A DNA stretch of 34,092 nucleotides from Zetaproteobacteria bacterium CG1_02_53_45 (GCA_001871925.1 MNWZ01000108.1:1-34092); one strand, 5' to 3'; positions 10,350-33,812 are shown, counted from the first letter of the stretch. The notes: generated by a model not told the origin, from the letters alone. A program made the numbers and translations.

Positions 10350-11330
10350 TTAACCTTTATTATTGCGGTTGATCAGGTTGATGATCACCTTCACGATGGT
10401 CTCTTTATCCGTTGGCTTGCTTTCGGCGATCAGCAGGGTGAGCGCCACCAGTGCATTGTCAGGGATGCGTTTACCGCCATCGGCGCGGTAGAGCATACCG
10501 TGACCGGCCATGAAATAGATGAAGATAGCGGCAGCGATGCGCTTGTTACCATCGCTGAAGGCGTGATTCTTGGTGATAAAGTAAAGCAGGTGCGCCGCTT
10601 TTTCCTCTACGCTCGGATAGACATCCTTGCCGTCGAAGGTTTGATCAATCGCACCCAATGCGCTCCTGAAACCCTGATCTTTCTCCAGCCCGAACAGCCC
10701 GTCGAATTCACCCTTCATCGATGCCACCACCCCGATGGCCTCTTCATAACTCAGTTGGTAAGCGGTGGTCGGGGAGGTGTTCTCAGTGACCAGGGTGCCG
10801 TGATCATAGCGATCCAGCGTGGTTAGCGCATAGGCATAATCAGAGATGACCTTGAGCAGTCCTTTCGCTTCAACTTCGCCCACGGCCTGGTGTGCCAGTG
10901 TGTTTTCGAGCAGGGCTACGGTGTTGCGCAGATCGCTTAGTTTCTGGTTTTGCTCCTGTAGCGTTTTTTCGTTCAGCGCGTACCCGCGAGTCAGATACTC
11001 TTTCAGTACCCTGTTGGCCCACTGGCGGAAGCGGGTCGCTCGCACTGAATTTATCCGGTAGCCGACAGATATTACTACGTCCAGATTGAAGAATTCGATC
11101 TCACGCGTCACTTCACGTGCACCCTCAGTTTGAACTGTTGCATTTTTTGCAACAGTTGCTGATCGATCAAGCTCTCCTTCTTTGTAAATACTGCGCAGAT
11201 GGCGAGAGACCACTGATTTGTCACGTTCAAATAACTCGCTTAGTTGGGCCAGTGAGAGCCAAATCGTTCCTGTATCAAGGCGAACCTCAACGTTACCATT
11301 TTCTGTTTGATAGATAGTGATTTCATTCAT
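10350..11330 (-). CDS. RhuM-family protein fused to a Fic/Doc domain
   Basis: N-terminus MNEITIYQTENGNVEVRLDTGTIWLSLAQLSELFERDKSVVSRHLRSIYKEGEL...RFRQWANRVLKEYLTRGYALNE (RhuM). C-terminus contains HAFSDGNKRIAAAIFIYFM (Fic/Doc HxFxDGNKR motif). Confidence 0.88.
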   Translation of the reverse strand: MNEITIYQTENGNVEVRLDTGTIWLSLAQLSELFERDKSVVSRHLRSIYKEGELDRSATVAKNATVQTEGAREVTREIEFFNLDVVISVGYRINSVRATRFRQWANRVLKEYLTRGYALNEKTLQEQNQKLSDLRNTVALLENTLAHQAVGEVEAKGLLKVISDYAYALTTLDRYDHGTLVTENTSPTTAYQLSYEEAIGVVASMKGEFDGLFGLEKDQGFRSALGAIDQTFDGKDVYPSVEEKAAHLLYFITKNHAFSDGNKRIAAAIFIYFMAGHGMLYRADGGKRIPDNALVALTLLIAESKPTDKETIVKVIINLINRNNKG

Positions 11331-12646: not shown

Positions 12647-13579
12647 CTAACGGCGCCTCAACAGCAGGAAGAGGAACACCGGCACGCCGATAATGGCCGT
12701 GAGAATGCCGACCGGAAGCTCGGCCGGTGCAATGATCGTGCGGGCCGCCGAGTCGGCCAGTACCAGCAGCAGTCCACCGCCGATGGCGGAAGCGGGCAGT
12801 ACGGCGCGATGCAGGGAGCCGAACAGCAGTCGCATCAGGTGCGGGATCACCAGCCCCACAAAACCGATGGTGCCGGCAGCAGTGACAGCCAGTGCGGTAA
12901 CGGCGGATGCCAGCAGCAGCAGTCGTGATCGCAGGCGTTTAACATCCACGCCCAAGGCTTCGGCATGGCGTTCGCCGAGCAGCAGTTTATCCAGTGAGCG
13001 AGAGAGAATCAGGCCGCAAATCAGCGCAATAACCCACGCCAGCAGCAGCAGGGGGACGGGCAGGTCGGAGTGGGATAGATCACCCATCATCCATGAGAAG
13101 GCGCGGAACAGCCCCTGTTCGGGTAGTAGTGCGAGCAACAGCGCCAGGACGGCCGACCAGAAGGCGGCCAGCACGACACCCGCCAGCAGCATACGGTTCG
13201 GCCCCAGATGCGAGAAAAACATGACGGCAACAATGCCGATCCAGGCACCGATAAATGCACCGGCCGACATAATCCATGCAGATTCGGGCATAAACATCAG
13301 GCCTGTAACAGCACCTGCGGAAGCCGAGCCCGCCACACCCAGCACATAGGGTTCGGCCAGCGGGTTACCCAGCAACACCTGAAACCACGCGCCGGCCAGT
13401 GCCAGCAGGCCGCCGACGGCAAATGCGGTAAGCAGACGCGGGAAACGCAGTTCCCAGAGTATCATGTGTTCCAGCCCGTCACCTGCAGCAAACGGATTGA
13501 TCCACTGCTCGCCTGCGGCAAGTCCCAGCAGCAGGCAGGCGGCAATGGCACAGGCAAGTGCGATCCAGCGTAGCGTCAT
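12647..13579 (-). CDS. btuC: Cobalamin ABC transporter permease (FecCD family)
   Basis: 310 aa hydrophobic; RFPRLLTAFAVGGLLALAGAWFQVLLGNPLAEPYVLGVAGSASAGAV, GTIGFVGLVIPHLMRLL. Confidence 0.9.
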   Translation of the reverse strand: MTLRWIALACAIAACLLLGLAAGEQWINPFAAGDGLEHMILWELRFPRLLTAFAVGGLLALAGAWFQVLLGNPLAEPYVLGVAGSASAGAVTGLMFMPESAWIMSAGAFIGAWIGIVAVMFFSHLGPNRMLLAGVVLAAFWSAVLALLLALLPEQGLFRAFSWMMGDLSHSDLPVPLLLLAWVIALICGLILSRSLDKLLLGERHAEALGVDVKRLRSRLLLLASAVTALAVTAAGTIGFVGLVIPHLMRLLFGSLHRAVLPASAIGGGLLLVLADSAARTIIAPAELPVGILTAIIGVPVFLFLLLRRR

Positions 13580-13595: not shown

Positions 13596-15452
13596 TCATT
13601 TTACCACCTTCGCGCCCCGTTTCAGCCAATCGAGCGCGCCGGGAGTTTTCTCCCACAGGTCGCGGGCGCATTGGCGATAGCTCCACGCCTCATCCTCGCC
13701 GCCGACGGAGGTGTAACCGGGATAGAGGTTTGTCGGCTCCTTCATGCGCTTGCGTAACAAGGCGTCAGGAATATGCGGCGACTGTTGAATTGCTTCAATC
13801 AGCCGTTTATTGGCGGCATGCTCTCTGCCAAGACGGAACAGGGCCAGCGCATGGCCGAAATTGATGCTGACATCGAAATCCTCCGGATAATGCTCACACA
13901 GCGCGACAACATCATCGTTGCGCCCCAGCCGCAGATAGCTGTTGACCACTTCGCTACGCATGCCCTGATTATCGTTGGGATTCAGGCGCAGCAACCACTC
14001 GCGCAACTCAAGTGCTTCCTTTTCACTATTGAGTTCTTCCATGGTATCGGCCAGAAAGCCGATCACGCGCAGTACCGGTCGGTTATCCGTGATTGCCCAG
14101 ATCAGCGGTTGCTTCGGTTGCATCGGGATCAGCGATTTGACCTGAAGCATCGCCAGCATGATTAACGGCTGAAAGGTGATCGCCGGGTTGGGTGCATCAA
14201 GCAGGTAGACCGACTGAATCAGGTCATCGATCACCCCAATGCTGCCGGCCAGTTCAGGATGTTTATCGAGCATCTCAAGCCAGGCATCGGGCTGATCCCA
14301 CATCTCTTCATGTTGCCACATCAGTTCGCGCCACTGCCCAAGCAGTTTGGCGCTCGCGCTGTTTTTGGGCTCGATCCGACAACAATCATCGAAGCTGCAA
14401 ATCTTTTCCATTGCTTTGGGCGGGTTCTTCATCACCTGCTGCAACCATGGAATCAACCTTCCCGCACCCGGCGACAGCTGCTCCAGCAGAGGTGCGAATG
14501 CCGTGGGGCCATCCGAAAGCATCTGTTCGATGTAGTCGATCAAGTCATCGAGTTCACCGTCCCGATTCATGCTGCTCAGTCGTTTGAGCCAGAATTTTCC
14601 GCGCTGCTGCATCTGTTTCAGTTTACCCTGCTGCATCAACAGCAGGATCTCCAGATGACTGAGCGCCGGATTGTCAGGGTCGATGCGTTGCGCTTTCTGA
14701 AAGCAGGCCCATGCCTCGTCGTCATAGCCCTGATCGCCGAGAATCGTGCACAACCGATGCAGCGCTGCCGATTGCAGTGCCTTGTCAGGATGGTTCACCA
14801 TGCGCTCGATCAGCGCTTTTTTCTTTCGCGGCTTATCCAGTGCCGTGCATATCTCGAACATCGTATCGAGCGCCGCCTCGTCGCGATGATCCAGCTTCGC
14901 ATCGCTCTGTTTGAAGATCGGATCCAGCAGAATGAGCGCACGCTTGGCCATGGACTCGCTTTCGCGCGCCCATTTCCCGGCAATATAACCGAGCAACATA
15001 TGTGAAAAGTGGAGGTGAGCCTGTTTCAGTTCAGCCTGCGTAATCAACTCCAGTAGAAAAATCGTGAGCAACTCGGTTGAAATCGGCGGCGTCTCCTCTG
15101 TGTCCAGACGGGCGCAGCACTGTTTGTATTTCCTGCCCGAACCACAGAGGCAGGGATCGTTGCGCCCGGGCAGCGGCAACGGGCGAGGACGGTAGTTGTT
15201 CGATGACAACGGCGTGCCGTTCCATATCTGTATTGCGAATAGCCGCGCAAGGCTGCGCAGTTCATCCTTGCCATCTGTATTCAGGTATCTGAAGAACTCA
15301 AAAAAGTCATCCGTGGCCAGCATGGTATAGAGGTTGATGAACTTCTCGGCATCGGGTTCCGTGTTGATCACAAACTGCACGCTCTGTCGCAGCATCTCTT
15401 CGAATGCCGCGAATGTTTCGCCGGAATCTGAATCTACAGGTTCATCAAACAT
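13596..15452 (-). CDS. SEC-C zinc-motif protein with TPR-like helical repeats
   Basis: 618 aa; GRNDPCLCGSGRKYKQCCARL (SEC-C) then DDEAWACFQKAQRIDPDNPALSHLEILLLM and other TPR-like repeats; AAGGAG RBS lies inside the end of the upstream gene. Confidence 0.75.
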   Translation of the reverse strand: MFDEPVDSDSGETFAAFEEMLRQSVQFVINTEPDAEKFINLYTMLATDDFFEFFRYLNTDGKDELRSLARLFAIQIWNGTPLSSNNYRPRPLPLPGRNDPCLCGSGRKYKQCCARLDTEETPPISTELLTIFLLELITQAELKQAHLHFSHMLLGYIAGKWARESESMAKRALILLDPIFKQSDAKLDHRDEAALDTMFEICTALDKPRKKKALIERMVNHPDKALQSAALHRLCTILGDQGYDDEAWACFQKAQRIDPDNPALSHLEILLLMQQGKLKQMQQRGKFWLKRLSSMNRDGELDDLIDYIEQMLSDGPTAFAPLLEQLSPGAGRLIPWLQQVMKNPPKAMEKICSFDDCCRIEPKNSASAKLLGQWRELMWQHEEMWDQPDAWLEMLDKHPELAGSIGVIDDLIQSVYLLDAPNPAITFQPLIMLAMLQVKSLIPMQPKQPLIWAITDNRPVLRVIGFLADTMEELNSEKEALELREWLLRLNPNDNQGMRSEVVNSYLRLGRNDDVVALCEHYPEDFDVSINFGHALALFRLGREHAANKRLIEAIQQSPHIPDALLRKRMKEPTNLYPGYTSVGGEDEAWSYRQCARDLWEKTPGALDWLKRGAKVVK

Positions 15453-18400
15453 GGTTACTCCTTACACCACTTTGTACACCATCGAGAAGTAGTCTCATTG
15501 CCTTTTCTCGAATTTCCAATTCATTATCATCTCGGAGAACTCTTGACCATTTTTCGATTTGACTCTGCTGCATGTATTTCAAATTCAGAACCCCCATTGC
15601 TGCATATCGAACCTTTGCATCATCCATCGAGAGCAGTTGTATGATTGTCTTGCATTGAGCCTGACTAAACTCAACGGATTGACGGAAAGCCTGAGAAAGA
15701 AGGTTGATTCTCAATTCTCCAAGGCCGACTCTCTCAATGAACTCATCTCTAAGAGGCTCGTCACCATCTAACCGATCAATCAATGATGTTTCAGCTATTC
15801 TCTGCACATCCGATCTTTCGTCGGCCACAAACGATATCAAATCCGAATTTGTTACTGCGTCAACAGAGAGCAAAAGAGAAAGCAGTTCCTCTCTCGGGCT
15901 ATCAGGTATCCTGCCTCCACCCTTTGGATATGGCTCTTCATGAGTCAACCAGTACTGATAGACTTCTTCCATCAAAGGAACCAGCCCTTTAACTTCGGAA
16001 TAACTCAATTTAGCAATCACTTTTGTTGTTTCTTCCGCAGTTAGTGGTCCCGAATTCAGCAGACCGTTTCTCAAAACGCCTTGAATTTCATCGTCCAATT
16101 CAAGTTCTAGCTCACTCAGTTTTCGATACAAATATTGGCACCCAGGCACCAACGGAAGCTTCAGCCTTTCAACAAGAAGCTTCTTCAAATCCATTTTGAT
16201 TTCCTGGGCAATCTGAGCAACAAACCAAAGGGCAATTCCATGCCCCGAAGCAGCCACACGATTTACAATTTCCAGAAGCGAGCTCTTATCTTCCAAATTA
16301 GATAAGAGATAACCGGCTAGCTGCACAATCCACTCCGACTTATGGTGCAGTGCTCGCTCAAGCTTTTGGATATCCAAATTACAGCTATTTACAGCCTTCA
16401 CATCCTCAGCAATATCTACGTGACTTAAACTCATATAAAAACTGTAGTAGCGATCATCGGCTGAAGCAGAGTCCATTCGATCAAGCATCGCCTTCGCCTC
16501 TTGAGAGAGAATTGCTTTATCTATCCCTGCAATTTCTATAATCCCCCGAAATACTTCCCTGACAGCTTCATCATCATGCTCTTCTTGCCAATCCCATATG
16601 TCCGGCAAAGAAACCTGCCAATATGCGCTTGCTTCAAGAAACGCCTCCAACTGAATAAATCGATCTTCTTCAGAAGGTGCTTCAGGAGCGCATAGAGAAT
16701 CCAGCAAATCTTGGTCGACCAAGGCAGAAAGTAGTTTTCTGTGAGCTATATTTTGAGCCGCATTAAATTCGGGGCTGCTAATATGGACTTGAGCACGACC
16801 AAGTGACCCCGCAACTTGCTTCGCCAGTTCTTCCTTTCCAAGCTCTTCAAGTAACCCAACAATATTCGTGCTAAACCCGACAGTTTTCAGCAAGGCATCT
16901 TGAGCAAGAGTATTCAAAACCATGTCCGCTTTATCTACCGGCAGATTTCTTACTATCTCACGAATCGCATTAGCAACAAATGCTTCCCTTATGTCTGAAA
17001 AGCTTTCTCTATTAAGGTTAAACCCTCCAAGCAAACTCTTGAAACCAGATTCAGCCATTTCTGGAAGAGATTCAAATGCAGCGACCAGTTCATTGAAGGC
17101 GTAATAGCTACTCCCTCCGTTTGTAACAAATGCCCATGCTGACAATCTTATCCATGTGTGTTCACTGTTGATCAAACTCTTTGCTAGTTCAGCAACCGCA
17201 TCGGGATATCGTTTGCTCACGGGCAACAAAGCAATCGCAATTCCCTTCGACTGAAAGTACCGAGGTGAATCAATTAAGGTAAATGCGGCATTAAGTACGT
17301 CCGTGAGATATTCCTCTTTGGGCTCAAATTGAGAGTCCGCGAGAAGACTCAGAGCGCGCTTCACCCACTTAATTTCTTCGGCGCTGTTTTTAATCCTTTT
17401 GATAAGCTCCGATGCAATTGATTCGCTCGCACCAAGTGAAGATGCAAATTTCAGCACCTCGGAGTCGGGAGCGTTTGATAGCTCAGAAATGATAACGTCA
17501 TGCTTCTCGTCTTCTGGCAAGGCGACCATATAACGGGCAGCGGCATACTCACCGAATGATTTATGGATAAACGTGACTGTGGCTTCATCGGTATGCCGGA
17601 TGGTTTCTACAAGGCCAGTCTCTTCCCAATATCGCAGAAATACTTCGCATTCGGCGACAGCATTCGTATAAGTAAGATCAAGCTCAGCCATCATGGCCTC
17701 TGCACATTTCTGAAGAGCATTCTCCACGGTAGAAACAGGGTATTTGAATAACACCCAGCCAAGCACGTCAAGAAACCAATTCGCTTTAGCTTTCGATATG
17801 TTTGGCTTATCTGTCCGGCTGGTCGAAGCATCATCAACAAGCTGGAAAAGCCGCTTAAAAAGGTCCACCTTGGAATGACCAAAGGTTATCTTCCGCACTG
17901 CCAGCGATACAGCCAACCCAAGAAGCAGAGGGCTTCTTTCAACCACCTTTCCTGCTTTGTTTTTCTTTAGTTCAGAGCATGCAAAATCAAAGCAATCGTT
18001 GAACTCTGCGGAACCAGATTCATACACTCCTGAAATCAGTTTATGCATATATACGTCGGCTTTATCTTCGATCAGCGGAAGCAGTTCGTAATGACGCCAT
18101 CCCTTCAGAGAATTGGTCGAATAGCCGACTGGCCGAGTTGTTACGACTACGCGACAAAGCGGATTGCTGGCAATGAACTTTTGAAGCCCTTCACATATAT
18201 CATTCTGACTTGCTCCCGTTTCGTCCAAACCATCACAAAGCAATACCCATTCCCGGAGAGCCAGGTTATCAAAGTTTTGCTTTTGCAGTGAAGAGCCATC
18301 CAGCCCAAGAGAGAAAATACCCTCTTCAACACCACTGCCATTCCGCATGCGCGCAGCCAGCGAATTCAGCCTGACTTTGATAACCGGAAACCCTTCACGC

Positions 18401-19449
18401 GCATACACCAAGGCCAGCTTCTTCAGCAATGTGCTTTTGCCCATGCCCGGACCTGAAATGACAACGCAGCGTCTGACAAATCTCCCTATGCTGGTTGGTT
18501 CGATGCTCTTTTCGTCAGAGCTGTACCTTCTATGTTCCCAGTTGTGATAGTGCTCTAAAGCCTCTGAAATCGTTTCTTGCTCAGACGCATCCTCTTTTCG
18601 AACCACTGTTTTCAGCGGCAGCCACGCTTTGTCCAGTGATAGTGGTTTACTGATTCCGAATATCTCGAAGGATGAATTGGTTTCCTTCGTCCATTTACAT
18701 AAGGCCGACAACATCGAAAGCGGGGACTTGGCGCAACCTACTCCGGCAACTGATATGCCCGAGCTTTCCAATGATCGCATGACTGTGGCAACAGTTCTTC
18801 GCCCCTGAAACTCGATCAGCTTTGTTGCATCCTTGTACAGGCAATCCCAAGCATGCTCAATTTGCCCGGAAGCAGAACAGATGTGTCTTAACTCGGAACG
18901 GGCAGAACTAATGTCTGCCGAATCGCGTTCCAAAGCATGAACAGTAATAATTCTGAGGTGCCCGCATACTGTTTCCGGCTCTATATCCAAAGCTCTCAAT
19001 TTGGATACGAACGCCTCTGAGATATCCTTTAGATTATCTGTTCTGCCATCTCCGATATGATGAATATCCTGTGACAAATCTGATCTGATTGACGCGCTGG
19101 ATTCCGGGCAAACAATGAGCAAACCGTGCGTGATGAGTTTGTTATTGATTGCTTTTGCTAACTCAATCAGCGAATCCCAAAGCTTATTTCCTTGCCGTAA
19201 CCCTTTTTTTACCTGAACTTCTGCAACAGATCCATTTCGAAAAAGCGCTTTGATATCATCGCCCGGCCCACCTGTTTCTGCTGAAACCTCAACAGGGATA
19301 TCATCAAGGACACTTTCAAACCAGCCAAGCCTAGAACCATTAGCAATATGAATTTCTACAATGGCAGTAACGGCCGCCTGGAAATTAATTCCGCCACCGG
19401 TTGCGCTTCCACCGGCAATGTTTTTCTTTTGTTTCTTCATATTGCTCAT
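15445..19449 (-). CDS. PD-(D/E)xK-like nuclease - NACHT NTPase - HEAT-repeat protein (bacterial NLR-like antiphage candidate)
   Basis: 1334 aa; N-terminus GGGINFQAAVTAIVEIH...GPGDDIKALFRNGSVAEVQVKKGL; Walker A VVISGPGMGKSTLLKKLA; Walker B EWVLLCDGLDETG; RVVVTTRPVGY; VTFIHKSFGEYAAARYM; long helical-repeat C-terminus. Confidence 0.85.
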   Translation of the reverse strand: MSNMKKQKKNIAGGSATGGGINFQAAVTAIVEIHIANGSRLGWFESVLDDIPVEVSAETGGPGDDIKALFRNGSVAEVQVKKGLRQGNKLWDSLIELAKAINNKLITHGLLIVCPESSASIRSDLSQDIHHIGDGRTDNLKDISEAFVSKLRALDIEPETVCGHLRIITVHALERDSADISSARSELRHICSASGQIEHAWDCLYKDATKLIEFQGRRTVATVMRSLESSGISVAGVGCAKSPLSMLSALCKWTKETNSSFEIFGISKPLSLDKAWLPLKTVVRKEDASEQETISEALEHYHNWEHRRYSSDEKSIEPTSIGRFVRRCVVISGPGMGKSTLLKKLALVYAREGFPVIKVRLNSLAARMRNGSGVEEGIFSLGLDGSSLQKQNFDNLALREWVLLCDGLDETGASQNDICEGLQKFIASNPLCRVVVTTRPVGYSTNSLKGWRHYELLPLIEDKADVYMHKLISGVYESGSAEFNDCFDFACSELKKNKAGKVVERSPLLLGLAVSLAVRKITFGHSKVDLFKRLFQLVDDASTSRTDKPNISKAKANWFLDVLGWVLFKYPVSTVENALQKCAEAMMAELDLTYTNAVAECEVFLRYWEETGLVETIRHTDEATVTFIHKSFGEYAAARYMVALPEDEKHDVIISELSNAPDSEVLKFASSLGASESIASELIKRIKNSAEEIKWVKRALSLLADSQFEPKEEYLTDVLNAAFTLIDSPRYFQSKGIAIALLPVSKRYPDAVAELAKSLINSEHTWIRLSAWAFVTNGGSSYYAFNELVAAFESLPEMAESGFKSLLGGFNLNRESFSDIREAFVANAIREIVRNLPVDKADMVLNTLAQDALLKTVGFSTNIVGLLEELGKEELAKQVAGSLGRAQVHISSPEFNAAQNIAHRKLLSALVDQDLLDSLCAPEAPSEEDRFIQLEAFLEASAYWQVSLPDIWDWQEEHDDEAVREVFRGIIEIAGIDKAILSQEAKAMLDRMDSASADDRYYSFYMSLSHVDIAEDVKAVNSCNLDIQKLERALHHKSEWIVQLAGYLLSNLEDKSSLLEIVNRVAASGHGIALWFVAQIAQEIKMDLKKLLVERLKLPLVPGCQYLYRKLSELELELDDEIQGVLRNGLLNSGPLTAEETTKVIAKLSYSEVKGLVPLMEEVYQYWLTHEEPYPKGGGRIPDSPREELLSLLLSVDAVTNSDLISFVADERSDVQRIAETSLIDRLDGDEPLRDEFIERVGLGELRINLLSQAFRQSVEFSQAQCKTIIQLLSMDDAKVRYAAMGVLNLKYMQQSQIEKWSRVLRDDNELEIREKAMRLLLDGVQSGVRSNHV

Positions 19450-19883
19450 TCGGCTTGCTTGGCGTCACTAAGATAAAACGAGAGGCACTGTCTCCCGTTT
19501 TGAGACTGCGATATGTATATGTGGCGAATAAGCTTGCGATAGTGTGTCCAGCTCAATTCGGTACGCACTGCGTTCCGAATTGGGAAGCTCAGATAAAATG
19601 CACGCATATTGCGAAGATTTCGAACGTCAAAACCTTTACCGAACTGCTCCGTCAGTCTGTTGGAAAGCTCCTGCAGCTTCTGCTTGCCATAGGCTGCGCG
19701 GCTGTTGCCCTGTTGTTCATGTTCGACAATCAGGCAGCCGATTTGCCAATAACTTTGCACCATGGCCTGATTGACAGCCTGCCGCACATGTTGGTGCGCC
19801 TGCTGGATGACTGTTGCGATGTCCTGATAAAGCAGTTGCATATCATCAGAAGGCGGCTGAATGATGTTCTCCGGATTGCTCAA
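19446..19883 (-). pseudogene. Truncated DUF1016/YhcG N-terminal domain (C-terminal nuclease domain missing)
   Basis: 145 aa; IATVIQQAHQHVRQAVNQAMVQSYWQIGCLIVEHEQQGNSRAAYGKQKLQELSNRLTEQFGKGFDVRNLRNMRAFYLSFP...RTELSWTHYR is the DUF1016_N signature; stops where family members continue to a PDDEXK domain. Confidence 0.8.
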
Positions 19884-21336
19884 GCCACACCTCCTGTCCC
19901 TGAACTGATTTTAGGCGCTTTGCCTCCAGCAGCTCGGGCGCAATCGCTTGCTCCAGCGCATCGGCGAGCAGGTCGAGGCTGGTCATGACCCGATGTGCGT
20001 GATCTTCGTCTGACTCTGTCGTCAGGCCCATTTCGGCAAGCCAAACCCTACGAAACTGGCCTGAGGCAAACAGCCCGTGCAGGTAGGTGCCCAGTACCAG
20101 CCCGTCATCGGAGCGATGGGAGAATGGAAACAGGGTTGCATCGGGGTGGTCATCGCCGTAGTGGATTTCATAACCAGTGACCGGCACCTGTTCCGGCCAG
20201 CAGGCCAGGGTCTCAATACGCTTCAATGTTTTCTCAGGCTGCATGCGGGTGGTGATATCGAGCCAGCCGAGCCCCGAAATCGAATCACTATGTTCGACAC
20301 CTGTCTTATCCATGACCTCTTTGCCCAGCATCTGCATGCCGCCGCAGATACCGAGAATTTTACCCCCGTAACGCAGATGTTTTTGCAGGGCTGCTACAAA
20401 CCCATGTTCATGAAGCCAGTCCAGGTCGGCAGCCACATGCTTTGAGCCGGGTAAAATGACCAGATCGGCGGGTTGCAGCTGGTCGGGGCGGTTGATCAGG
20501 CGCAGCGAAACGGACGGCTCATCAAACAGCGGATCGAGATCATCAATATTGCTCAAACAGGGGTAGGCGATAACAGCAATGTTAAAACCGTCAGGCGCTG
20601 GATGCGCGTATCCCGTGGCCAGTCGATAGGGCGCATCCTCTTCAGGCAGATGCAGCGGCAGCCAGGGCACCACACCGGCAACCTTCTTGCCGCTCTGTCT
20701 CTCCAGCCATGTCAGACCATCTTCAAGCAGGGCCAGATGACCGCGGAAGCGGTTAATCAGCAGCGCTTTGACTCTTGCCCGTTCTGAATCCGAAAAAATA
20801 TTCAATGTGCCGGTCAGTGATGCGAAGACACCGCCGCAGTCAATATCGCCAACCAGCCAGACGGGTATATCCGCTGCCTCGGCAAAGCCCATATTGGCGA
20901 TGTCACCGGCGCGCAGGTTCGGCTCGGCGGGCGAACCTGCCCCTTCAACCAGCACCACATCATATTGTGTCTGCAGGATGCTGAATGATTCAAGCACTGT
21001 TTCCAGCCATTGCTGGCGTTCTTCGCGAAAACGGGCTGATCTGAGTGTGCCGACCACTTTTCCTCGCACCACCAGCCGGGCCGTTCCGTGTGCTTCCGGC
21101 TTGAGCAGCACCGGATTCATATGCACGCTCGGCTCGATGCCGCAGGCAAAGGCCTGCAAGGCCTGCGCGCGGCCGATCTCGCCGCCATCAATGGTGACAG
21201 CTGCATTGTTGCTCATGTTCTGCGGCTTGAACGGAGCGACAGATACGCCATTGCGCTCCAGCAGCCTGCACAGCCCTGCGACCAGTACCGATTTGCCTAC
21301 ACCCGATGCTGTGCCCTGAATCATCAGTGCCTTCAT
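19846..21336 (-). CDS. cobQ: Cobyric acid synthase CobQ/CbiP
   Basis: MKALMIQGTASGVGKSVLVAGLCRLL...APFKPQNMSNNAAVT...ILGICGGMQMLGKEV (amidotransferase triad Cys). Confidence 0.95.
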   Translation of the reverse strand: MKALMIQGTASGVGKSVLVAGLCRLLERNGVSVAPFKPQNMSNNAAVTIDGGEIGRAQALQAFACGIEPSVHMNPVLLKPEAHGTARLVVRGKVVGTLRSARFREERQQWLETVLESFSILQTQYDVVLVEGAGSPAEPNLRAGDIANMGFAEAADIPVWLVGDIDCGGVFASLTGTLNIFSDSERARVKALLINRFRGHLALLEDGLTWLERQSGKKVAGVVPWLPLHLPEEDAPYRLATGYAHPAPDGFNIAVIAYPCLSNIDDLDPLFDEPSVSLRLINRPDQLQPADLVILPGSKHVAADLDWLHEHGFVAALQKHLRYGGKILGICGGMQMLGKEVMDKTGVEHSDSISGLGWLDITTRMQPEKTLKRIETLACWPEQVPVTGYEIHYGDDHPDATLFPFSHRSDDGLVLGTYLHGLFASGQFRRVWLAEMGLTTESDEDHAHRVMTSLDLLADALEQAIAPELLEAKRLKSVQGQEVWLEQSGEHHSAAF

Positions 21337-21434: not shown

Positions 21435-23096
21435 TCAGTCGGTTAATTTCCACTCGGGAGAGCTTTTTGAAGCAGTATTGCGGATCACATCATGCATGCG
21501 CAACTTACTGATAATATTGCCGACTTTGTTTTTCTTTTGTGACTCGTCGAGTGCGCTGCTGATCTTGTCCAGCAACAATGCATCAATATCCTTTCTTGAT
21601 GCACTGCCGAACTTTCTTAAATAATCTGTAATTAACTTTGCGTAGTAGTCATCATCTTGTGCCCTGGTCCGGATATAATCAACTTTTCTGGCCGTGGCTT
21701 TGGCGACCGGTACAGAGACATGAAGGTTGGGCTTGCGCCCTTCGATCAGACCATCGCGTCGCAGCCGCTTGATCATAGCATCGGTCAGCGGCAGCCGTTT
21801 TTGAACGCGATCGAGGGCAATAATTTCGTCCAGTGGCAGGTTGGTTTTCTGAATCAGTAATCGGCTGTATGCAGGGTCAACCACGCCACCGTACAATGTC
21901 ATCTTCACTGCATTGGCTTCACTAAAGTCGTAATCAGGCATTGGAAAATAACGGCGGGCTTGACCAATATGAATGGAATGGATGCCATAGCCCATGGTGT
22001 CGATCATATTTAATTCAGCCATAGCCTGGGCCAGAAATGGATTGCGATAGCGGCGCGGTGTTTTGTTGCCGGCAATATAATCATCAGGCCGGCCCTCAAA
22101 AAATGCGCCTTCATTTTCAAAAATCAGACGATCCGGTAACTCTGTTACAATGATGCGTCCATTTCGGGTAAAGTCCTGATGAGCAATGCAGTTGTGCAGG
22201 GCTTCCAAAACGATTCGTTGATCATACTTGGAAACCTCAATAGTCAGCAGTTGGTCATCAGGCAATATGCGCAGCTGTATATTCCGTATCTTTTGATACA
22301 GGACAGTTGTGTTAAGCAGAAAAGGCGGACCGAAATGTTCGTAAGCCCGCTCCGGGCCTTCGAGCTTCCAGGTCATTTGCGCTGGATGTGGCGACAACAG
22401 ATATGTGGACTCAGGCTTGCCAAGCAACAAGAGCGTCGTGCGTGTTATCTGGCCACTCTGGGTTAGTCTGGCGCGATCCAGAAAAGATTCCAAAGGCCAA
22501 TCTATGACCTCTTCTTCCGGAAACCGATTTGAATACTTCCGTGCGTATGACTCGCGAGCTTTTTGCAACGCCTGTTCATCCAGATCCTTCGCAGCAGCTC
22601 CAGAAACCACTTGTGCGGACCAGTCGCTGGACATCGTCTGTTGGCGAATTTCATCTTGCTTGTCGAGCCCAAGGCTTCCAAGGCTTTCGCCGGAACGCGC
22701 GTAGTAATGCCCTTTCCATGCAATCGGCATTCCACGCGGAGTCGCAGGAATCTCAAACAGAACAACGCGACCATCAGGATGCTTGAGTTCATAGATATTA
22801 CGAAAGGTAATACTGGGCTCGGTGTTATCGGCAATTTGCAGCTTTGTACTTTGCAGACGTTCCTGGTCTGAACGATACGCGGAGCCAATTACCTGCCTGC
22901 TTTTATTGTCCACACCAAAGATCAGCCATGCCCTGTCCAATTCTCGCAAATTGGCTTCATTGGACATGGCTGAAAAATAGCGTCCGATCTTGTCTGTAGC
23001 GTAGTCGTTGCCGGCCTGCTTAAACTCCACCACCTCATTTTCCCAGGTGGCAATGAGGCTGTTCAGCAGTGAGAGCAGTTCATGTTGTTTCACCAT
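21435..23096 (-). CDS. AlbA_2/Schlafen-like DNA-binding domain protein with HATPase_c_4-like and winged-helix regions
   Basis: NEVVEFKQAGNDYATDKIGRYFSAMSNEANLRELDRAWLIFGVDNKSRQVIGSAYR (AlbA_2); ALHNCIAHQDFTRNGRIIVTELPDRLIFENEGAFF (HATPase_c_4-like). Start at 23096 has GGAGGTGT RBS. Confidence 0.82.
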   Translation of the reverse strand: MVKQHELLSLLNSLIATWENEVVEFKQAGNDYATDKIGRYFSAMSNEANLRELDRAWLIFGVDNKSRQVIGSAYRSDQERLQSTKLQIADNTEPSITFRNIYELKHPDGRVVLFEIPATPRGMPIAWKGHYYARSGESLGSLGLDKQDEIRQQTMSSDWSAQVVSGAAAKDLDEQALQKARESYARKYSNRFPEEEVIDWPLESFLDRARLTQSGQITRTTLLLLGKPESTYLLSPHPAQMTWKLEGPERAYEHFGPPFLLNTTVLYQKIRNIQLRILPDDQLLTIEVSKYDQRIVLEALHNCIAHQDFTRNGRIIVTELPDRLIFENEGAFFEGRPDDYIAGNKTPRRYRNPFLAQAMAELNMIDTMGYGIHSIHIGQARRYFPMPDYDFSEANAVKMTLYGGVVDPAYSRLLIQKTNLPLDEIIALDRVQKRLPLTDAMIKRLRRDGLIEGRKPNLHVSVPVAKATARKVDYIRTRAQDDDYYAKLITDYLRKFGSASRKDIDALLLDKISSALDESQKKNKVGNIISKLRMHDVIRNTASKSSPEWKLTD

Positions 23097-23132
23097 ACAC
23101 CTCCGGGCAAGTTGAATTCGACTCGACAAAGA

Positions 23133-24317
23133 TTACAGCATTAGCGCATTGATAGCTGCCTGCACATGTGAAAATGCAATCCGCTCCTGCTCAAGGCGAA
23201 CCTGTTCACACAGAACATTGCTACGCATATCATGGTAGAGCGATGCTTCATCCGCAGTCAGGCGAGGTAGATCCCGATGCTCCTGGGCCGGCTCTCGACC
23301 CCATAATGCGCGATGCGTCATCAGGGTCTGCCGATCCATCAGCAGCGACTGAGCGTGCGGAAAACGGGCGCGCAACTGATCCAGAATGGCAAAGCCATGG
23401 GTATCGATATCGCCCCAGTAAAAGAGATCGCAATCAGCCAGCCATACCGCCTGCGCCAGGGCATCAAAGCCATAGCCTGAACCGAAAATAATCAGACTAT
23501 CCGGCACATCGGGGAAGGCCAGGTAATTGATCTCATTCTCGGTGATAAAGACCCGCCGGACAGGGGGCACCATTGCGGTAAAGCTTGCTGCAGTCAGGCT
23601 GACATCCTGATCGCCAGCTGAACAGAGCCAGCGGATAGCCTCATCCAGCGGTCGCATGCGAACAAGCAACGGCTTATCCAGAAATCCATAGCGACGAGCG
23701 AATCCGCTTGTCCCGGTAAACTGCTGATTTACTGCCGTTTCCGGCAGCACAAGATCGAACAGTTCGGCCAGCACACCGCGATGGCGCTCAATAAACTTGC
23801 TATCCAGTCCCGCTGCATCGATCTGTCGCACATAGATGCCCGGTTGCGGATTGGCCAGCATCCACGCCGTCATCGTTAGCAGTTGCGGCCACACCGTAGC
23901 CAGCTCCAGCGCTTTGAGCGGGCGTTTTGCCAGCCATTGGCAGAGCTGCGGCATCGCTGCGGCCGTTGTCTCACACATGCTGCGAAACAGGGCTAGCTCC
24001 CGTGACTTGCCGATCACGGCTGCCGCTTGCCCGGGTGATGCAAACAGCAATGCGCAGGGCAGTTCATTGCGCCCCAGGGTTCGATGACGAACCTCCCGCC
24101 ACTCCAGAGCCAAATCATGGCGTGCGGCCAGCTGCCTGATATCGGCTACCCACGCGCGCATGGCATCAAACTCATCGAGCATCACCCTGGCTGACGGCTG
24201 CTTCAGTGGCAGGCGTAGCGGAAATCGATCAGGTTCGAGTAGAGTCAGACAGAGCTCCCCCTGCTTCCAGAGTTGCAGCAGTTGCTGGCGTATCGACGCA
24301 GCGGTGACCCAGTTCAA
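23133..24317 (-). CDS. jetD: Wadjet JetD (DUF3322/DUF2220, TOPRIM-like nuclease)
   Basis: 394 aa; FITENEINYLAFPDVPDSLIIFGSGYGFDAL...DLFYWGDIDTHGFAILDQLRARFPHAQSLLMDRQTL; gene order after jetC. Confidence 0.88.
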   Translation of the reverse strand: MNWVTAASIRQQLLQLWKQGELCLTLLEPDRFPLRLPLKQPSARVMLDEFDAMRAWVADIRQLAARHDLALEWREVRHRTLGRNELPCALLFASPGQAAAVIGKSRELALFRSMCETTAAAMPQLCQWLAKRPLKALELATVWPQLLTMTAWMLANPQPGIYVRQIDAAGLDSKFIERHRGVLAELFDLVLPETAVNQQFTGTSGFARRYGFLDKPLLVRMRPLDEAIRWLCSAGDQDVSLTAASFTAMVPPVRRVFITENEINYLAFPDVPDSLIIFGSGYGFDALAQAVWLADCDLFYWGDIDTHGFAILDQLRARFPHAQSLLMDRQTLMTHRALWGREPAQEHRDLPRLTADEASLYHDMRSNVLCEQVRLEQERIAFSHVQAAINALML

Positions 24318-27300
24318 GTCAGCGTTCCTTCAAGTTTACGTTTCTCCTGGCGATATGCTTCGATCGTCAGGTTTCTCAAGCGTGATGTCTGGCCCGAATC
24401 ATTGGAGACAAAACCGACATGCTGCACATGCGGTTCAATGATATGGATCTTCTGCAACGGGGTGACAATCAGCAACTGCAATTTGAGCTGCTCAAACAGT
24501 TTCAAACCATATTCCGCCGAATCATCGGAGCCGCGCCCGAAAGCTTCATCAATCACCACAAAGCGGAAGGAGCGCGAGCGCACGGCATTCCATTCCAGTC
24601 CGAACTGATAGGCGAGACTGGCCGCCAGAATCGTATAAGCGAGTTTCTCCTTCTGGCCACCCGACTTGCCGCCGGAATCGGCATAGTGCTCATATTCTGT
24701 ATCATCTTCCCGCCAGCGTTCGGAGGCGGCAAAGCGAAACCAGTTACGCACATCGCTGACCTTGAGCATCCAGCGCTGATCGGCATCGGCCATGCCATCG
24801 CGGCCACGAAAGCGCTCGATAATCTGTTTGACCTGCAAAAATTTTGATTCTGAATACTGATCATCATCCGAACCGGTTACACTGCCTTCCGTGCAGGCGC
24901 GCAACTGCTGCTGAAACGATTGAATCTCCGCATCCACCGCAGCTTGTGCCAACAGTTTGATATAACGCCCCGGCACATAATCAATTTGCGTCAATGACTG
25001 ATTGATATGCTCGATGCGCTCCCTGATTTTTTCACTCTCATGGCGCAGCTGGCTCTGAAAATTGGCAATTTCACGAATGGTATTTTCATTGAGCAGCTCT
25101 TTGAAGCGCGCCTCAAAACGCGGCAGATCATCGGCGTTGAGACTCGCAAGCATGGCCCCGTACTCATGCGCCGAGCGCAAATCGACATCGACCTCCTGCG
25201 TCTCCAGCGCAAACTCCTTCTTGTAATCGCTCATGGCCTTGATGATGGCATCGCGCAGGCGGGCCAGCTTTTTATCCTCATTTTCAATTCGGGCCTGCAA
25301 CCAGTTCCGCAGTCGCTGCTCCTGTCCGTCGCATGACTCCACCGTCGGTTGCCCGGATTCGCCAAGGGCTTCACTGCTGTAGGCTTCCAGTTGGCCAAAA
25401 CAGGATTGATACTCCGCCTCACTCTCCGTGAGCAGAGCCTGCAAAACCGCATAATCATGCTGTGCCGCATCGCGCCGCTCTTCACGTCTGGCGCGGTCAT
25501 CATTGCGATCCTTCAGCAGTCGTTCACTCTCGGCCAGCTCCTGCAGAACCTGTTCGCGCTGGTCGCTGAGCAGGCGCAAACGATCGGATGCTGCCTCCAG
25601 CGCCTCTTTCTCTTGTTGCAGGCGGGCAATCTCCAGCGCCAGCGGCTGCCAGTCGATATCGCGGAAATCACGATACTCATCGAGTTTTCCGAGTGTCTCC
25701 AGCCGCTGTTGATGCGCTTTCAGCGTGCGTTGCAGTGCAGTCACCTGCGTTGCCAGTTCAGTCAGTCTCTGCTGCTGTTGCGTCGCTTCCTTTTGCAGCA
25801 GAGCGATCTTTTCCGCATTGCTCCAGCCAAGCACATAACGACTGCGATCATCAATAGGATGGCGGTCATCCTTCTCATGCCGACCGCCCTTCGCCTTGAT
25901 CTGGCCGGCACGGGTCAGGGCGCGATCCTCGCGCCGGAACTGCTCGGGTGTGTCACAGCAGGCGTAATCAAAGCGATGTGCCAGCTCCTGCTCCAGCCAG
26001 TCGGCAAAGGGGGAGTCGGGTTTAAGCTCAAGCTTGCGGGCCAGCGATTGCGGGTGCAGTTCGGGCAAGCTGTAACGGCTTGCTTCGCGCACGCGAAAAT
26101 AGACCATCCGACCTTTCAGGTGATGCTGATCCACCCATTCCGCCACCCGGGCGTAGTGTTGCTCGGGCACCAGCAGCGACAAGGCAAAATTGTGCAGCAG
26201 TCGTTCGGCTGCCCCTTGCCAGTCCCGCTCCTGCGCATGCACCTGAATCAACTCACCGGCAAACGGCATCTCCGCCTCGGCAAGAGCAAGCGCGTCACAC
26301 AAGCGCGTCCGAATCGCAATCTGTTGTTCACTGATATTGCTCTTCCTCCGCTTCAATCCCTCCAGTTCATGCGCCAGCAGATCATAATCGCGTTTCCCCT
26401 GCACCAGATCGACGCCTCTCTCCTGCAGCCGGTTCTGCGTTTCAGCCTCTGCTACATTCAGTGTCGAATGCAGCAGCTGCGCTTGTTGCCGACCGGCAAT
26501 AAAGGCGTCCACATCCGTTATCGCCGGCAGGTCAAGCAACTGCAGCAGTTCTGCGTAGCGTGTCGCGCGTTGCAGACAACGCTCTTTTTCACCTGACTTT
26601 TCGTGCATCTCTTCTTGCAGGCGGGCGATACGATCACCGCCCTGATCGGCAATGGCGCGCTCCAGCTGGCGCTCCTTTTGCCGCTCTGACTGCACTTTTT
26701 CTTCGAGCTGCATAATACGCTGCTGCAATCGCGCCAGCTCACCATCGAGTTTGCTGATCCGCTCGGCCAGCAATGCCGACTTGATACGAGCAAACCAGAC
26801 CTTGAGCGCCTCACGACAGGCGCGCAGCTGCACAACAGCCAGATCCAGATCGGCATGGCGCTGGCAATCGGCAACCAGTGGCGACAACAACGCCACCTGC
26901 CGCTTGGCTTTAAGCACAGCCTGATGGGCCCGGTTCAAATCATCAAAGTGTGCAATCAAGGCCTCAATGCGCGGGATAACATCAAACGGCTCAAGCATAT
27001 GACCACGCACGAACTCGGTCAGGTTGCCGATCGATTTCATCGATACGGTCTGATGAAACAGCTCCAACGCCTGATCGTTGTCGATGCCGAAGCGACGGCG
27101 GAAATGGCCACCATAGGGTGGGAATGCATCAAACAGGGCAACGCCTTCGCCTTTCAGGCGCTTGCGCAGTTGCAGCATATCACTGCCGAAGGCGCCGAAA
27201 TCATCGGCAATCGAGAGTTCGCGATCCGCTGCAATATAAAAGCGCTCGGGTTGACCCTGTGACTGGCGAAACCAGAACACCTGCGCCAGCGTCACGGTCT

Positions 27301-27691
27301 GATCGAAACCGGCATTGTGAAATACGCCGAGAATGACTGAATAGTGCGTGTGATCACGCAGCGCCACCGGCTTGGCACTGCCGATATGTTCGCTCTGTTC
27401 GGATTTATAATATCCCATGACATAAGAGCGCAGCGTACGCTCTTTCGCAGCCGCACCGGCGGCCTTGTTGTAGGCGATCCGGTGGGCCGGCACCAGTAGC
27501 GTGGTCACTGCATCCACCAGCGTTGATTTGCCCGATCCGATATCGCCGGTAAGCAGGGCATTTCTGCCATCAAGCTGAAAACGCCAGACCTTGCGATCAA
27601 AGGTGCCCCAGTTCAACACCTCCAGCCGCATCAGTCGGAAACCGGTCAGCGCATCATCACGCACAAATTCAAGTTCCAGACTACGATTCAT
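24314..27691 (-). CDS. jetC: Wadjet JetC (SMC/MukB/MksB-like ATPase)
   Basis: Walker A ALLTGDIGSGKSTLVDAVTTLL, long coiled coil, signature SGGKSGGQKEKLAY, Walker B FRFVVIDEAFGRGSDDSAEYGLKLF. ATG at 27691 overlaps the jetB stop (ATGA). Confidence 0.93.
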   Translation of the reverse strand: MNRSLELEFVRDDALTGFRLMRLEVLNWGTFDRKVWRFQLDGRNALLTGDIGSGKSTLVDAVTTLLVPAHRIAYNKAAGAAAKERTLRSYVMGYYKSEQSEHIGSAKPVALRDHTHYSVILGVFHNAGFDQTVTLAQVFWFRQSQGQPERFYIAADRELSIADDFGAFGSDMLQLRKRLKGEGVALFDAFPPYGGHFRRRFGIDNDQALELFHQTVSMKSIGNLTEFVRGHMLEPFDVIPRIEALIAHFDDLNRAHQAVLKAKRQVALLSPLVADCQRHADLDLAVVQLRACREALKVWFARIKSALLAERISKLDGELARLQQRIMQLEEKVQSERQKERQLERAIADQGGDRIARLQEEMHEKSGEKERCLQRATRYAELLQLLDLPAITDVDAFIAGRQQAQLLHSTLNVAEAETQNRLQERGVDLVQGKRDYDLLAHELEGLKRRKSNISEQQIAIRTRLCDALALAEAEMPFAGELIQVHAQERDWQGAAERLLHNFALSLLVPEQHYARVAEWVDQHHLKGRMVYFRVREASRYSLPELHPQSLARKLELKPDSPFADWLEQELAHRFDYACCDTPEQFRREDRALTRAGQIKAKGGRHEKDDRHPIDDRSRYVLGWSNAEKIALLQKEATQQQQRLTELATQVTALQRTLKAHQQRLETLGKLDEYRDFRDIDWQPLALEIARLQQEKEALEAASDRLRLLSDQREQVLQELAESERLLKDRNDDRARREERRDAAQHDYAVLQALLTESEAEYQSCFGQLEAYSSEALGESGQPTVESCDGQEQRLRNWLQARIENEDKKLARLRDAIIKAMSDYKKEFALETQEVDVDLRSAHEYGAMLASLNADDLPRFEARFKELLNENTIREIANFQSQLRHESEKIRERIEHINQSLTQIDYVPGRYIKLLAQAAVDAEIQSFQQQLRACTEGSVTGSDDDQYSESKFLQVKQIIERFRGRDGMADADQRWMLKVSDVRNWFRFAASERWREDDTEYEHYADSGGKSGGQKEKLAYTILAASLAYQFGLEWNAVRSRSFRFVVIDEAFGRGSDDSAEYGLKLFEQLKLQLLIVTPLQKIHIIEPHVQHVGFVSNDSGQTSRLRNLTIEAYRQEKRKLEGTLT

Positions 27692-28314
27692 AGCCCGTCG
27701 CCGGTTGCACATAGACGATTGCGATATTCGGCCAGACGCTGGTCAAAATCGGCCAGCCATTCGGCATCAACAAAGGCTTTGATAATGCGATGCAACTCGA
27801 TCATCTGTTCCTGCCCGTGCAGGCGGCGTACAAAGCCCATTTTGGCAATTTGATTGAGATGGCTCTCCACCTGATCGATCAGACGCACCTCATTGCTGCC
27901 TTCAGGCAGAAAGACGCGAATCATCTCCACCACCTCATCACGTGACAGAATCACCCTCAACTCGCCTCCTGTCGCATCGGATTCCGCCAGTTTCTTGCGT
28001 AGCAAAGCCAGTAACAGGCTCACCGGGAACGAGAGCTGGCGTCTGGCCACCAGGCGTGGCAATGCCACCTGCGCATCTTCATCGCTCGCATCCCGCGAAC
28101 GCAGAAATGCATACCCTTCCGCTTCATCTAGGATGAGTTCCAGCCCCAATACCGCCACATAATCGCGCACGGCGGCCTGCAAACAGAGCAGCATCTGCCA
28201 CAGGCGCGTATCCGCCTCACGATCTATCACTCCCTTAAGCAGCGTGATGACGACCGGTGAAAGCTGCGGCATGGCGGCAAATCCATGGCCCTGATCCAGT
28301 TCCAGTTCTCCCAT
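27688..28314 (-). CDS. jetB: Wadjet JetB (DUF4194, MksE-like)
   Basis: 208 aa; VITLLKGVIDREADTRLWQMLLCLQAAVRDYVAVLGLELILDEAEGYAFLR; located between jetA and jetC. Confidence 0.88.
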   Translation of the reverse strand: MGELELDQGHGFAAMPQLSPVVITLLKGVIDREADTRLWQMLLCLQAAVRDYVAVLGLELILDEAEGYAFLRSRDASDEDAQVALPRLVARRQLSFPVSLLLALLRKKLAESDATGGELRVILSRDEVVEMIRVFLPEGSNEVRLIDQVESHLNQIAKMGFVRRLHGQEQMIELHRIIKAFVDAEWLADFDQRLAEYRNRLCATGDGL

Positions 28315-28316
28315 CT

Positions 28317-29771
28317 TTACCTCACAAACAATATTTGCGGCAGCCGCGCCTGCCTGATACAGCCATCGGACGCCTGCCAGCTGATGATCTCTTCGGCATG
28401 GTCATCAATGACGCTGCGGGGATATTCACTGGCCAGTTGCATCCATACAATCAACTCGGCCAAACCATATTGCAACGGATGCTGTAACAGCAGCGCGCCA
28501 AGCCTGATCTGCGGTTGCTGTTGCAGGGTTTTATGCAACATTCGCTTCAAGCGCATCTTGTCAACCACCACCTGGGTAAACAGGGCACTGGCATCGCCAT
28601 CCTCTTCACCGGCCTGTAGTTCAACTGCCGCAATCGCCGCCTGCAACGGCGGTTGATACATCGGTCGCTCCATAGGTAACTGCAGGGCAACGGCCATCTC
28701 ATCGATCTCCATCACACTATCCTGCGGGGGCGTCGCACGGCAGTCGAGCGCACTGGCCTCAATACCATGCAGAATCTCCATAATGCGCCGATTCTCCAGC
28801 CATGCCTGATCATCCAGAAAGCGGCGCAACTGCCGCGATAGTTGCGCCACGGTGCGCTGGGTATGCTCACCGGCAGCAAGCCAGTCATAATGCACCCGGC
28901 GCAGACGCGAATCCGGCCCTGATTGTGCAATGGCAGACAAGCCCATGACCTTGTCCAGCAGGGTTGTCAGCTCCTCCTGCCTGCTGCTCGACATCAGAAA
29001 GTCCCAGAAGGCGCGAAAGCTTCTGCCCTGATCGGAATCAGTGATCGCGTCACACTCGCCCAGCACATCCGCCAGCAGCGTACCTTTGCCACCGTCCCAC
29101 AACGCAATGCGCTCACGCACCTTGCGATCAAGCAGGCGAAAGTTCTGTTCTACTTCACGAAAATCGCTCAGCAGTTCGCGCGCCATCATGGAAAATTGCT
29201 GGAAGCGATCTTTCACCGCCGTTTCATCGAGCATCGGCATATCACCCGACCTGATCCGGCTGATCTCCTGATCGATCTCCCGCCGCCGCTTGCGCAACTC
29301 CGCGATGCGCACCTCCGGGTCGGTTTCACTGCCCTCAGCCATTTGCCGCAACAGATCAAAGATGGTTAGCAGGCGCGATTCCGTACCGATAAATGTGCGC
29401 TCGGAGAGAGCTGCCAGCCAGCGCACCCCCTTCTCCGTAGCCGGCGTCAGATCATAATGCGGCTCATCGGAATTCGGCGGATAAAACTTGCGCAGCCATC
29501 CCTGCGCATTGTCCGACCAGTCATTCAGATAGTCCTGCGCACTGCGCGGATACTTATCTCCGCCCAGTCGTTCGCGCAGAGCATAGAGTGTATCCTCCAG
29601 CGCTTCGGCCAGATCAGCCTCTGCCAACTCGCGCACATTCGGGGTGATAAACACCTGATGCAGGAAACTCGCCACCAGCGGAGCGGAGTCCGCCCGCAGC
29701 AGCCGCCAGGCAGGGTGATTCATGCGCAATGCATCCAGAGCCTCGTGGCTGAGCGGCGTCGAATCAATCAT
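28317..29771 (-). CDS. jetA: Wadjet JetA (DUF3375, MksF/kleisin-like)
   Basis: 484 aa; HPAWRLLRADSAPLVASFLHQVFI...LTPATEKGVRWLAALSERTFIGTESRLLTIFDLLRQM; first gene of jetABCD. Confidence 0.9.
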   Translation of the reverse strand: MIDSTPLSHEALDALRMNHPAWRLLRADSAPLVASFLHQVFITPNVRELAEADLAEALEDTLYALRERLGGDKYPRSAQDYLNDWSDNAQGWLRKFYPPNSDEPHYDLTPATEKGVRWLAALSERTFIGTESRLLTIFDLLRQMAEGSETDPEVRIAELRKRRREIDQEISRIRSGDMPMLDETAVKDRFQQFSMMARELLSDFREVEQNFRLLDRKVRERIALWDGGKGTLLADVLGECDAITDSDQGRSFRAFWDFLMSSSRQEELTTLLDKVMGLSAIAQSGPDSRLRRVHYDWLAAGEHTQRTVAQLSRQLRRFLDDQAWLENRRIMEILHGIEASALDCRATPPQDSVMEIDEMAVALQLPMERPMYQPPLQAAIAAVELQAGEEDGDASALFTQVVVDKMRLKRMLHKTLQQQPQIRLGALLLQHPLQYGLAELIVWMQLASEYPRSVIDDHAEEIISWQASDGCIRQARLPQILFVR

Positions 29772-33531: not shown

Positions 33532-33560
33532 TCAATCGCCTCAGTGGTGCAGTCATGCCG

Positions 33561-33751
33561 AGTTTCGGGCCGGTCTCCTGGCTTGCCTTCATCCGCGGCT
33601 GTTCTCCTTCCCAGGTGATCAGTGATCAATTTCCCAGTGGGTTCGAACAACGTTGTCAGGCCTACAGTAGCGGGGGCTGCGCCGGAATTGACTAGTAACA
33701 GTCGCACCGGACTTCCCGTTTCACCCATAGTCTTTCGACTGATCGGGCACC
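33561..33751 (-). ncRNA. Cobalamin riboswitch
   Basis: On the - strand: GGTGCCC...AAACGGGAAGTCCGGTGCGACT...TCCGGCGCAGCCCCCGCTACTGTA...CACTGGG...CTGGGAAGG...GATGAAGGCAAGCCAGGAGACCGGCC, including the B12 box. Confidence 0.95.
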
Positions 33752-33812
33752 CAAAACAGGGCGCACACTAACGTCACTGCGGATATGCGTCTATCTGTGT
33801 CGACGCTCACCG

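What the first reader, a model, noticed from the sequence alone, without database searches (positions are those of the whole stretch)
13596..19883. Candidate undescribed defence unit: DUF1016N' + nuclease-NACHT-HEAT + SEC-C/TPR with overlapping genes
Stop and start overlap by 4 nt (ATGA at 19446-19449) between the DUF1016 N-domain ORF and the NACHT gene. An 8-nt overlap joins the NACHT gene to SEC-C (15445-15452), with the SEC-C RBS inside the NACHT coding end. The tight coupling suggests co-translation. NACHT proteins with effector domains are known antiphage factors. A fixed pairing with a SEC-C/TPR partner is not one I recognise as a named system.
Basis: partly seen in the sequence, partly recalled or inferred. 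Interest (0 to 1): 0.8.

Follow-up and report, generated by a model that had tools for sequence, protein, structure and literature searches.

The report
Defence NACHT gene inside B12 operon
The window holds a bacterial immune-receptor gene (a DNA-cutting enzyme fused to a NACHT switch and a helical sensor) dropped into a vitamin B12 operon; its two overlapping neighbours are a broken gene remnant and a gene that usually lives without it, so this is one more stand-alone NACHT defence gene, not a new three-gene system.

Summary
The three ORFs, both overlaps and the SEC-C ribosome-binding site are exactly as described. Four full-length relatives of the NACHT protein (30-37% identity) in other genera stand alone, with no SEC-C or DUF1016 gene nearby. 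In the only same-genus relative the SEC-C gene is reduced to 22 codons. SEC-C/TPR relatives occur in at least 18 genomes without this NACHT: in two related families they sit mostly in the cobalamin operon, in another mostly between a topoisomerase and an MFS gene. The DUF1016 ORF is a truncated YhcG; five of five copies of that subfamily at this locus are broken, in different ways. The NACHT protein itself is a credible STAND immune receptor: Cap4/Avs3-like PD-(D/E)XK nuclease, NACHT ATPase, HEAT-like solenoid. It is a new member of a known kind. More interesting is the setting: a riboswitch-headed B12 directon that, across this family (probably Mariprofundaceae), repeatedly carries co-directional cargo, much of it defence-type (Wadjet, YhcG, RhuM-Fic, SoFic, nSTAND3, SNF2). 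Whether the riboswitch controls that cargo is untested.

The parts
15445..19449 (-). Stand-alone STAND/NLR-like protein, 1334 aa: Cap4-like PD-(D/E)XK nuclease (about 13-115; D65, E77-x-Q79-x-K81), NACHT (about 328-472; Walker A GPGMGKS 333-339, Walker B LLCDGLDE 403-410), C-terminal alpha-solenoid (HEAT-like) sensor
   Evidence: Pfam NACHT 4e-9; conserved residues in an alignment of four relatives; predicted alpha-beta-beta-beta-alpha-beta core, Foldseek to Cap4 and Avs3; NLRC4 and HEAT solenoids
13596..15452 (-). SEC-C (C101-x-C103-x8-C112-C113) plus TPR-solenoid protein, 618 aa; recurrent gene of the cobalamin operon in relatives, not a fixed NACHT partner
   Evidence: Pfam; 11-sequence alignment with invariant cysteines; cob-operon position without NACHT in relatives; 20 of 399 genomes
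19446..19883 (-). DUF1016_N remnant: YhcG truncated after about residue 119, C-terminal nuclease domain missing; run-on tail of about 25 codons into the NACHT start
   Evidence: Pfam covers only profile positions 1-104 of 137 and no YhcG_C; homology to the G007 copy stops at LIR; other copies also broken
19846..21336 (-). cobQ, upstream flank of the insert; its C-terminus beyond about residue 470 is not shared with relatives
   Evidence: Pfam and NCBIfam; relatives match to about residue 471
12647..13579 (-). btuC, downstream flank of the insert; directly abuts or overlaps cobQ in the empty sites of G026 and G003
   Evidence: Pfam FecCD; empty sites
33551..33769 (-). Cobalamin riboswitch heading the co-directional BtuB-to-CobA directon in which the insert lies
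   Evidence: Rfam RF00174, 102 bits, E=1e-24; conserved in relatives

Best explanation
The NACHT gene is a self-sufficient STAND immune receptor. Its helical C-terminal solenoid senses infection, ATP-dependent NACHT oligomerisation switches it on, and the N-terminal Cap4-like nuclease then cuts DNA and stops the phage or the cell. It was inserted, as one of several interchangeable cargo genes, between cobQ and the SEC-C gene or btuC of a B12 operon. The DUF1016 ORF upstream is what is left of an earlier cargo gene (yhcG). The SEC-C/TPR gene downstream is a separate gene found at this operon, probably a metal-binding adaptor or chaperone-like protein. The gene overlaps keep translation continuous along the directon and do not mark a complex. 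Shown: architecture, conserved motifs, neighbours and remnants. Inferred: phage defence, the activation steps, DNA as target and the SEC-C function.
For: Predicted nuclease core with Foldseek best hits Cap4 (6vm5, E=1.3e-4) and Avs3 (8dgc, 5.9e-4). Conserved D65, E77, Q79, K81 and Walker A in four relatives. The rest of the protein matches NLRC4 and HEAT solenoids. bNACHT25 and bNACHT32 have the same plan and need their nuclease residue D48 for defence (PMC12169576). The four relatives outside the genus have no SEC-C or DUF1016 gene in reach. G022 keeps the same 8-nt overlap but only 22 SEC-C codons, then btuC. SEC-C without NACHT: G010, G014, G002, G005, G028, G033, G067, G076 and others. Five of five copies of this DUF1016 subfamily are broken. 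Empty cobQ-btuC junctions in G026 and G003. Cargo ORFs between cob genes: 48 co-directional against 2.
Against: No activity data. The nuclease model is only moderately confident (mean pLDDT 60) and global TM-scores are low (about 0.3). The G022 copy shows that NACHT and SEC-C were adjacent before the two copies parted, and the NACHT of window and G022 is less diverged at synonymous sites (dS 0.78) than btuC (1.32) or cobQ (2.49), so NACHT and at least the 5' end of SEC-C may have travelled together. SEC-C is preceded by defence-type genes in several genomes (NACHT, nSTAND3, PDC-S62), so an accessory role is not excluded.
Confidence: 0.78

Rival explanations
1. NACHT and SEC-C/TPR form a real two-gene system in this lineage: SEC-C/TPR acts as a metal-binding adaptor or chaperone that presents phage proteins to the NACHT solenoid or keeps it inactive.
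For: 8-nt overlap with SEC-C ribosome-binding site inside NACHT, shared with G022; low dS of NACHT between window and G022; another STAND gene (Mrr-nSTAND3) just upstream of SEC-C in G002; bNACHT25 needs a host chaperone, DnaJ (PMC12169576).
Against: Only one intact pair found; G022 lost SEC-C and kept NACHT; four distant NACHT relatives lack it; most SEC-C relatives have no STAND gene beside them.
Confidence: 0.12
2. All three genes work together, the DUF1016 N-domain acting as DNA-binding or antitoxin part.
For: 4-nt overlap at 19446-19449; the DUF1016 N-domain codons show an old purifying signal (dN/dS about 0.07-0.24).
Against: The nuclease domain is absent, the tail after residue 119 is non-homologous run-on, and copies in G010, G028, G007 and G002 are broken in other ways and without NACHT. 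The substitution signal may simply predate truncation.
Confidence: 0.03
3. The locus is decaying: NACHT is inactive or silent, kept only by linkage to the B12 operon.
For: Neighbouring cargo is often broken (DUF1016; SEC-C in G022, G059 and G076).
Against: NACHT is a full-length open frame with catalytic and Walker residues intact and dN/dS about 0.21 against G022.
Confidence: 0.07

Closest known systems
bNACHT25 / bNACHT32 (clade 6 bacterial NACHT proteins)
   Same: Single protein: N-terminal PD-(D/E)XK DNase, central NACHT, C-terminal sensor (PMC12169576)
   Different: No sequence comparison could be made here; NCH1 domain not tested; this protein's nuclease is closest to Cap4/Avs3 by fold; host and locus differ
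Avs3 (AVAST STAND receptors)
   Same: N-terminal Cap4-like nuclease (8dgc among the best Foldseek hits) and STAND logic
   Different: No Avs model matched among PADLOC hits; about 1330 aa against about 2000; NACHT rather than the Avs-type ATPase; HEAT-like rather than the Avs3 C-terminus
Cap4 of CBASS
   Same: Nuclease fold (6vm5 and others)
   Different: NACHT plus solenoid in place of the SAVED sensor; no cyclase gene recognised among the neighbours
PADLOC candidate PDC-M54A
   Same: First about 89 residues alike (E=2e-7 window, down to 1e-9 in relatives)
   Different: The rest of the 1621-aa model does not match
YhcG / DUF1016 nuclease (PADLOC PDC-S02)
   Same: The 19446-19883 ORF is its N-domain
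   Different: Nuclease domain missing; a remnant
Defence island GI-23 in classical Vibrio cholerae, inserted in the cobalamin riboswitch upstream of btuB (PMC12409358)
   Same: Defence genes at a B12 locus with a cobalamin riboswitch
   Different: There a 25-kb island interrupts the riboswitch; here single cargo genes lie co-directionally inside the operon, riboswitch intact

Membership tests
Bacterial NACHT (bNACHT) receptor | Central NACHT module with Walker motifs | tested here: met
   PF05729 37 bits against cut-off 26.7; Walker A/B conserved
Bacterial NACHT (bNACHT) receptor | N-terminal effector domain | tested here: met
   Predicted PD-(D/E)XK core, Foldseek Cap4/Avs3; by prediction only
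Bacterial NACHT (bNACHT) receptor | C-terminal sensing domain | tested here: met
   Alpha-solenoid predicted, HEAT proteins as hits; Pfam HEAT_2 below cut-off; that it senses anything is inferred
Bacterial NACHT (bNACHT) receptor | Antiphage activity | not testable with these tools
   No experiment
Avs (AVAST) | Match to Avs models | tested here: not met
   PADLOC scan shows only PDC-M54A and PDC-S73 weakly
CBASS Cap4 | SAVED domain and neighbouring cyclase | tested here: not met
   No SAVED or cyclase match in the proteins scanned
YhcG / DUF1016 | DUF1016_N plus YhcG_C nuclease in one protein | tested here: not met
   Only DUF1016_N positions 1-104 of 137
Proposed three-gene unit | Conserved co-occurrence of NACHT with SEC-C | tested here: not met
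   One intact pair; NACHT without SEC-C and SEC-C without NACHT

The most novel reading that the evidence does not exclude
In this lineage the B12 operon works as a defence site whose cargo (Wadjet, NACHT, Fic and others) is transcribed from the riboswitch-headed operon, so immunity is tuned by cobalamin supply; cells short of B12, and so expressing the BtuB receptor, raise their defences at the same time.
Probability: 0.1. Interest if true: 0.65.

Novelty: new member of a known kind. Interest (0 to 1): 0.3.

Why it matters
It shows how tightly overlapping genes can mislead: the overlap comes from cargo dropped into an operon where about half of all junctions overlap. It also points to a vitamin B12 operon that repeatedly acquires co-directional defence-type genes downstream of a cobalamin riboswitch, which could be tested for vitamin-dependent immunity.

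Tried and rejected
Viral contigs scan with the NACHT protein found no relative. PDB sequence searches gave nothing useful for the nuclease and only weak NLRC4 for the whole. Idea that p184 in G010 is a recognisable STAND gene: no family in Pfam or PADLOC and no relative in 80 genomes, dropped. Idea that SEC-C is tied to SNF2-SWIM helicases (G028): not repeated elsewhere. PMC searches returned no paper evidently about defence cargo inside B12 operons; full texts were not read beyond the Vibrio cholerae example, and the library holds only open-licence papers. The genome-contig scan used only two peptide patterns, so more NACHT relatives probably exist than were found.

Full report
Observation. 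The window carries, all on the minus strand, a 145-aa ORF (19446-19883), a 1334-aa ORF (15445-19449) and a 618-aa ORF (13596-15452). The ATGA overlap and the 8-nt overlap are there, and AAGGAG precedes the SEC-C ATG inside the NACHT coding end. Pfam gives DUF1016_N, NACHT, and SEC-C plus TPR. It is less special than it looks: by coordinates, about 8 of 17 junctions in the surrounding directon overlap, including ordinary B12 gene pairs.

Setting. The three ORFs lie between cobQ and btuC in a co-directional run BtuB-TonB-BtuF-JetABCD-SLFN-CobQ-DUF1016N'-NACHT-SECC-BtuC-BtuD-BtuR-RhuM/Fic-CbiX-CobA headed by a cobalamin riboswitch at 33551-33769 (conserved in relatives). The contig lengths of two related single-contig genomes (2,537,610 and 2,301,665 bp) match the 2.54 and 2.30 Mbp of Mariprofundus aestuarium CP-5 and M. 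ferrinatatus CP-8 (PMC5513912). I therefore infer, without proof, that the genus is Mariprofundus.

The NACHT protein. Four full-length relatives were found outside the genus: a Rhizobium plasmid (35%), Thiocapsa, Azospirillum and a Syntrophaceae MAG (30-37%). D65, E77, Q79, K81 and the Walker A and B residues are conserved in the four-sequence alignment. The predicted N-terminus has the PD-(D/E)XK order alpha-beta-beta-beta-alpha-beta; its best PDB fold matches are Cap4 and Avs3. The remainder is a NACHT domain followed by an alpha-solenoid; hits are NLRC4 and HEAT proteins. Confidence of the models is moderate (mean pLDDT 60 and 67). This is the plan of bNACHT25, whose nuclease is required for defence (PMC12169576).

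NACHT without SEC-C. No SEC-C relative lies within the fetched flanks of the four distant loci. One weak TPR-type hit in Azospirillum (best domain E 0.04) is not one. No DUF1016 gene is there either. In same-genus G022 (73% identity over the C-terminal 423 aa, contig edge before that) the same 8-nt overlap is followed by only 22 SEC-C codons and then btuC.

SEC-C without NACHT. A profile search hit 20 of 399 genomes, while the NACHT profile hit only G000 and G022 in a sample of the same size. In the window's family and one neighbour family the SEC-C gene is in or near the B12 operon, for example cobQ-cbiB-aminotransferase-SECC-cobU in G067 and G076, and aminotransferase-SECC-cobU in G033. Exceptions are G005, which has a second divergent copy elsewhere, and G028, where it lies about 10 kb downstream of cobQ. 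In another family (f28) most copies are a syntenic chromosomal gene, with a topoisomerase and an MFS transporter on either side where annotated. SEC-C is under purifying selection (dN/dS 0.13-0.16), so it is a working gene with its own life.

DUF1016. The ORF ends its homology after residue 119 (LIR) and runs on for about 25 codons into the NACHT start. The same subfamily is truncated and frameshifted in G010, split in G028, internally deleted in G007 (YhcG_C positions 116-156 only) and a fragment in G002. It is a remnant. The genome holds no second YhcG by this search.

Cargo site. Empty cobQ-btuC junctions exist in G026 and G003. Other genomes carry, between cob genes, Wadjet (G028; also just upstream of cobQ in G014, G021, G022), RhuM-Fic (seven genomes with the window), YhcG and Mrr-nSTAND3/PDC-S73 (G002), SoFic and an unclassified 1446-aa P-loop protein (G022), an SNF2-SWIM helicase (G022), an ERCC4 nuclease (G007) and SLFN/AlbA_2 (G014). 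Of cargo ORFs counted between cob genes 48 are co-directional and 2 are not. The count includes SEC-C and unidentified ORFs and was not corrected for shared ancestry. About half of the same-genus operons examined carry no such cargo.

A caution. NACHT differs less at synonymous sites between window and G022 (dS 0.78) than btuC (1.32) or cobQ (2.49) do. That hints at exchange between lineages of a block including NACHT and the SEC-C start, so a local partnership cannot be excluded. Codon-usage effects could also lower dS.

Verdict. A new member of a known kind (NACHT/STAND nuclease receptor) as cargo in a B12 operon. The proposed unit is not supported.

Noticed in passing
33551-33769 (-): Cobalamin riboswitch (RF00174, E=1e-24) upstream of btuB, heading the directon that carries Wadjet, NACHT and RhuM-Fic.
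   Followed up: partly
23133-29771 (-): Complete Wadjet JetABCD between btuF and cobQ; Wadjet also next to cobQ in G014, G021, G022 and G028.
   Followed up: partly
21435-23129 (-): AlbA_2/Schlafen-type protein following JetD, also in G028 (81% over a short stretch); role unknown.
   Followed up: no
10350-11330 (-): RhuM-Fic fusion (PADLOC PDC-S23) between btuR and cbiX, at the same place in G010, G013, G026 and G011; in G015 it follows btuR at the contig edge, and in G005 it lies before cobQ.
   Followed up: partly
19475-19501 (-): Inverted repeat AAAACGGGAG-ACAGTGC-CTCTCGTTTT (9 of 10 pairs) just upstream of the NACHT start, in the run-on part of the DUF1016 ORF.
   Followed up: no
L044:4996-9336: 1446-aa P-loop protein in the G022 B12 operon with no significant Pfam or PADLOC family; possible new STAND-type receptor beside a SoFic gene.
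   Followed up: partly
L032:6123-8453: Mrr-nSTAND3 protein (PADLOC PDC-S73, E=3.5e-155) directly before SEC-C in G002.
   Followed up: partly
L030:10904-11458: 184-aa ORF overlapping SEC-C by 4 nt in G010, no family; its last part shares a leader of about 115 bp with the G002 SEC-C gene.
   Followed up: yes
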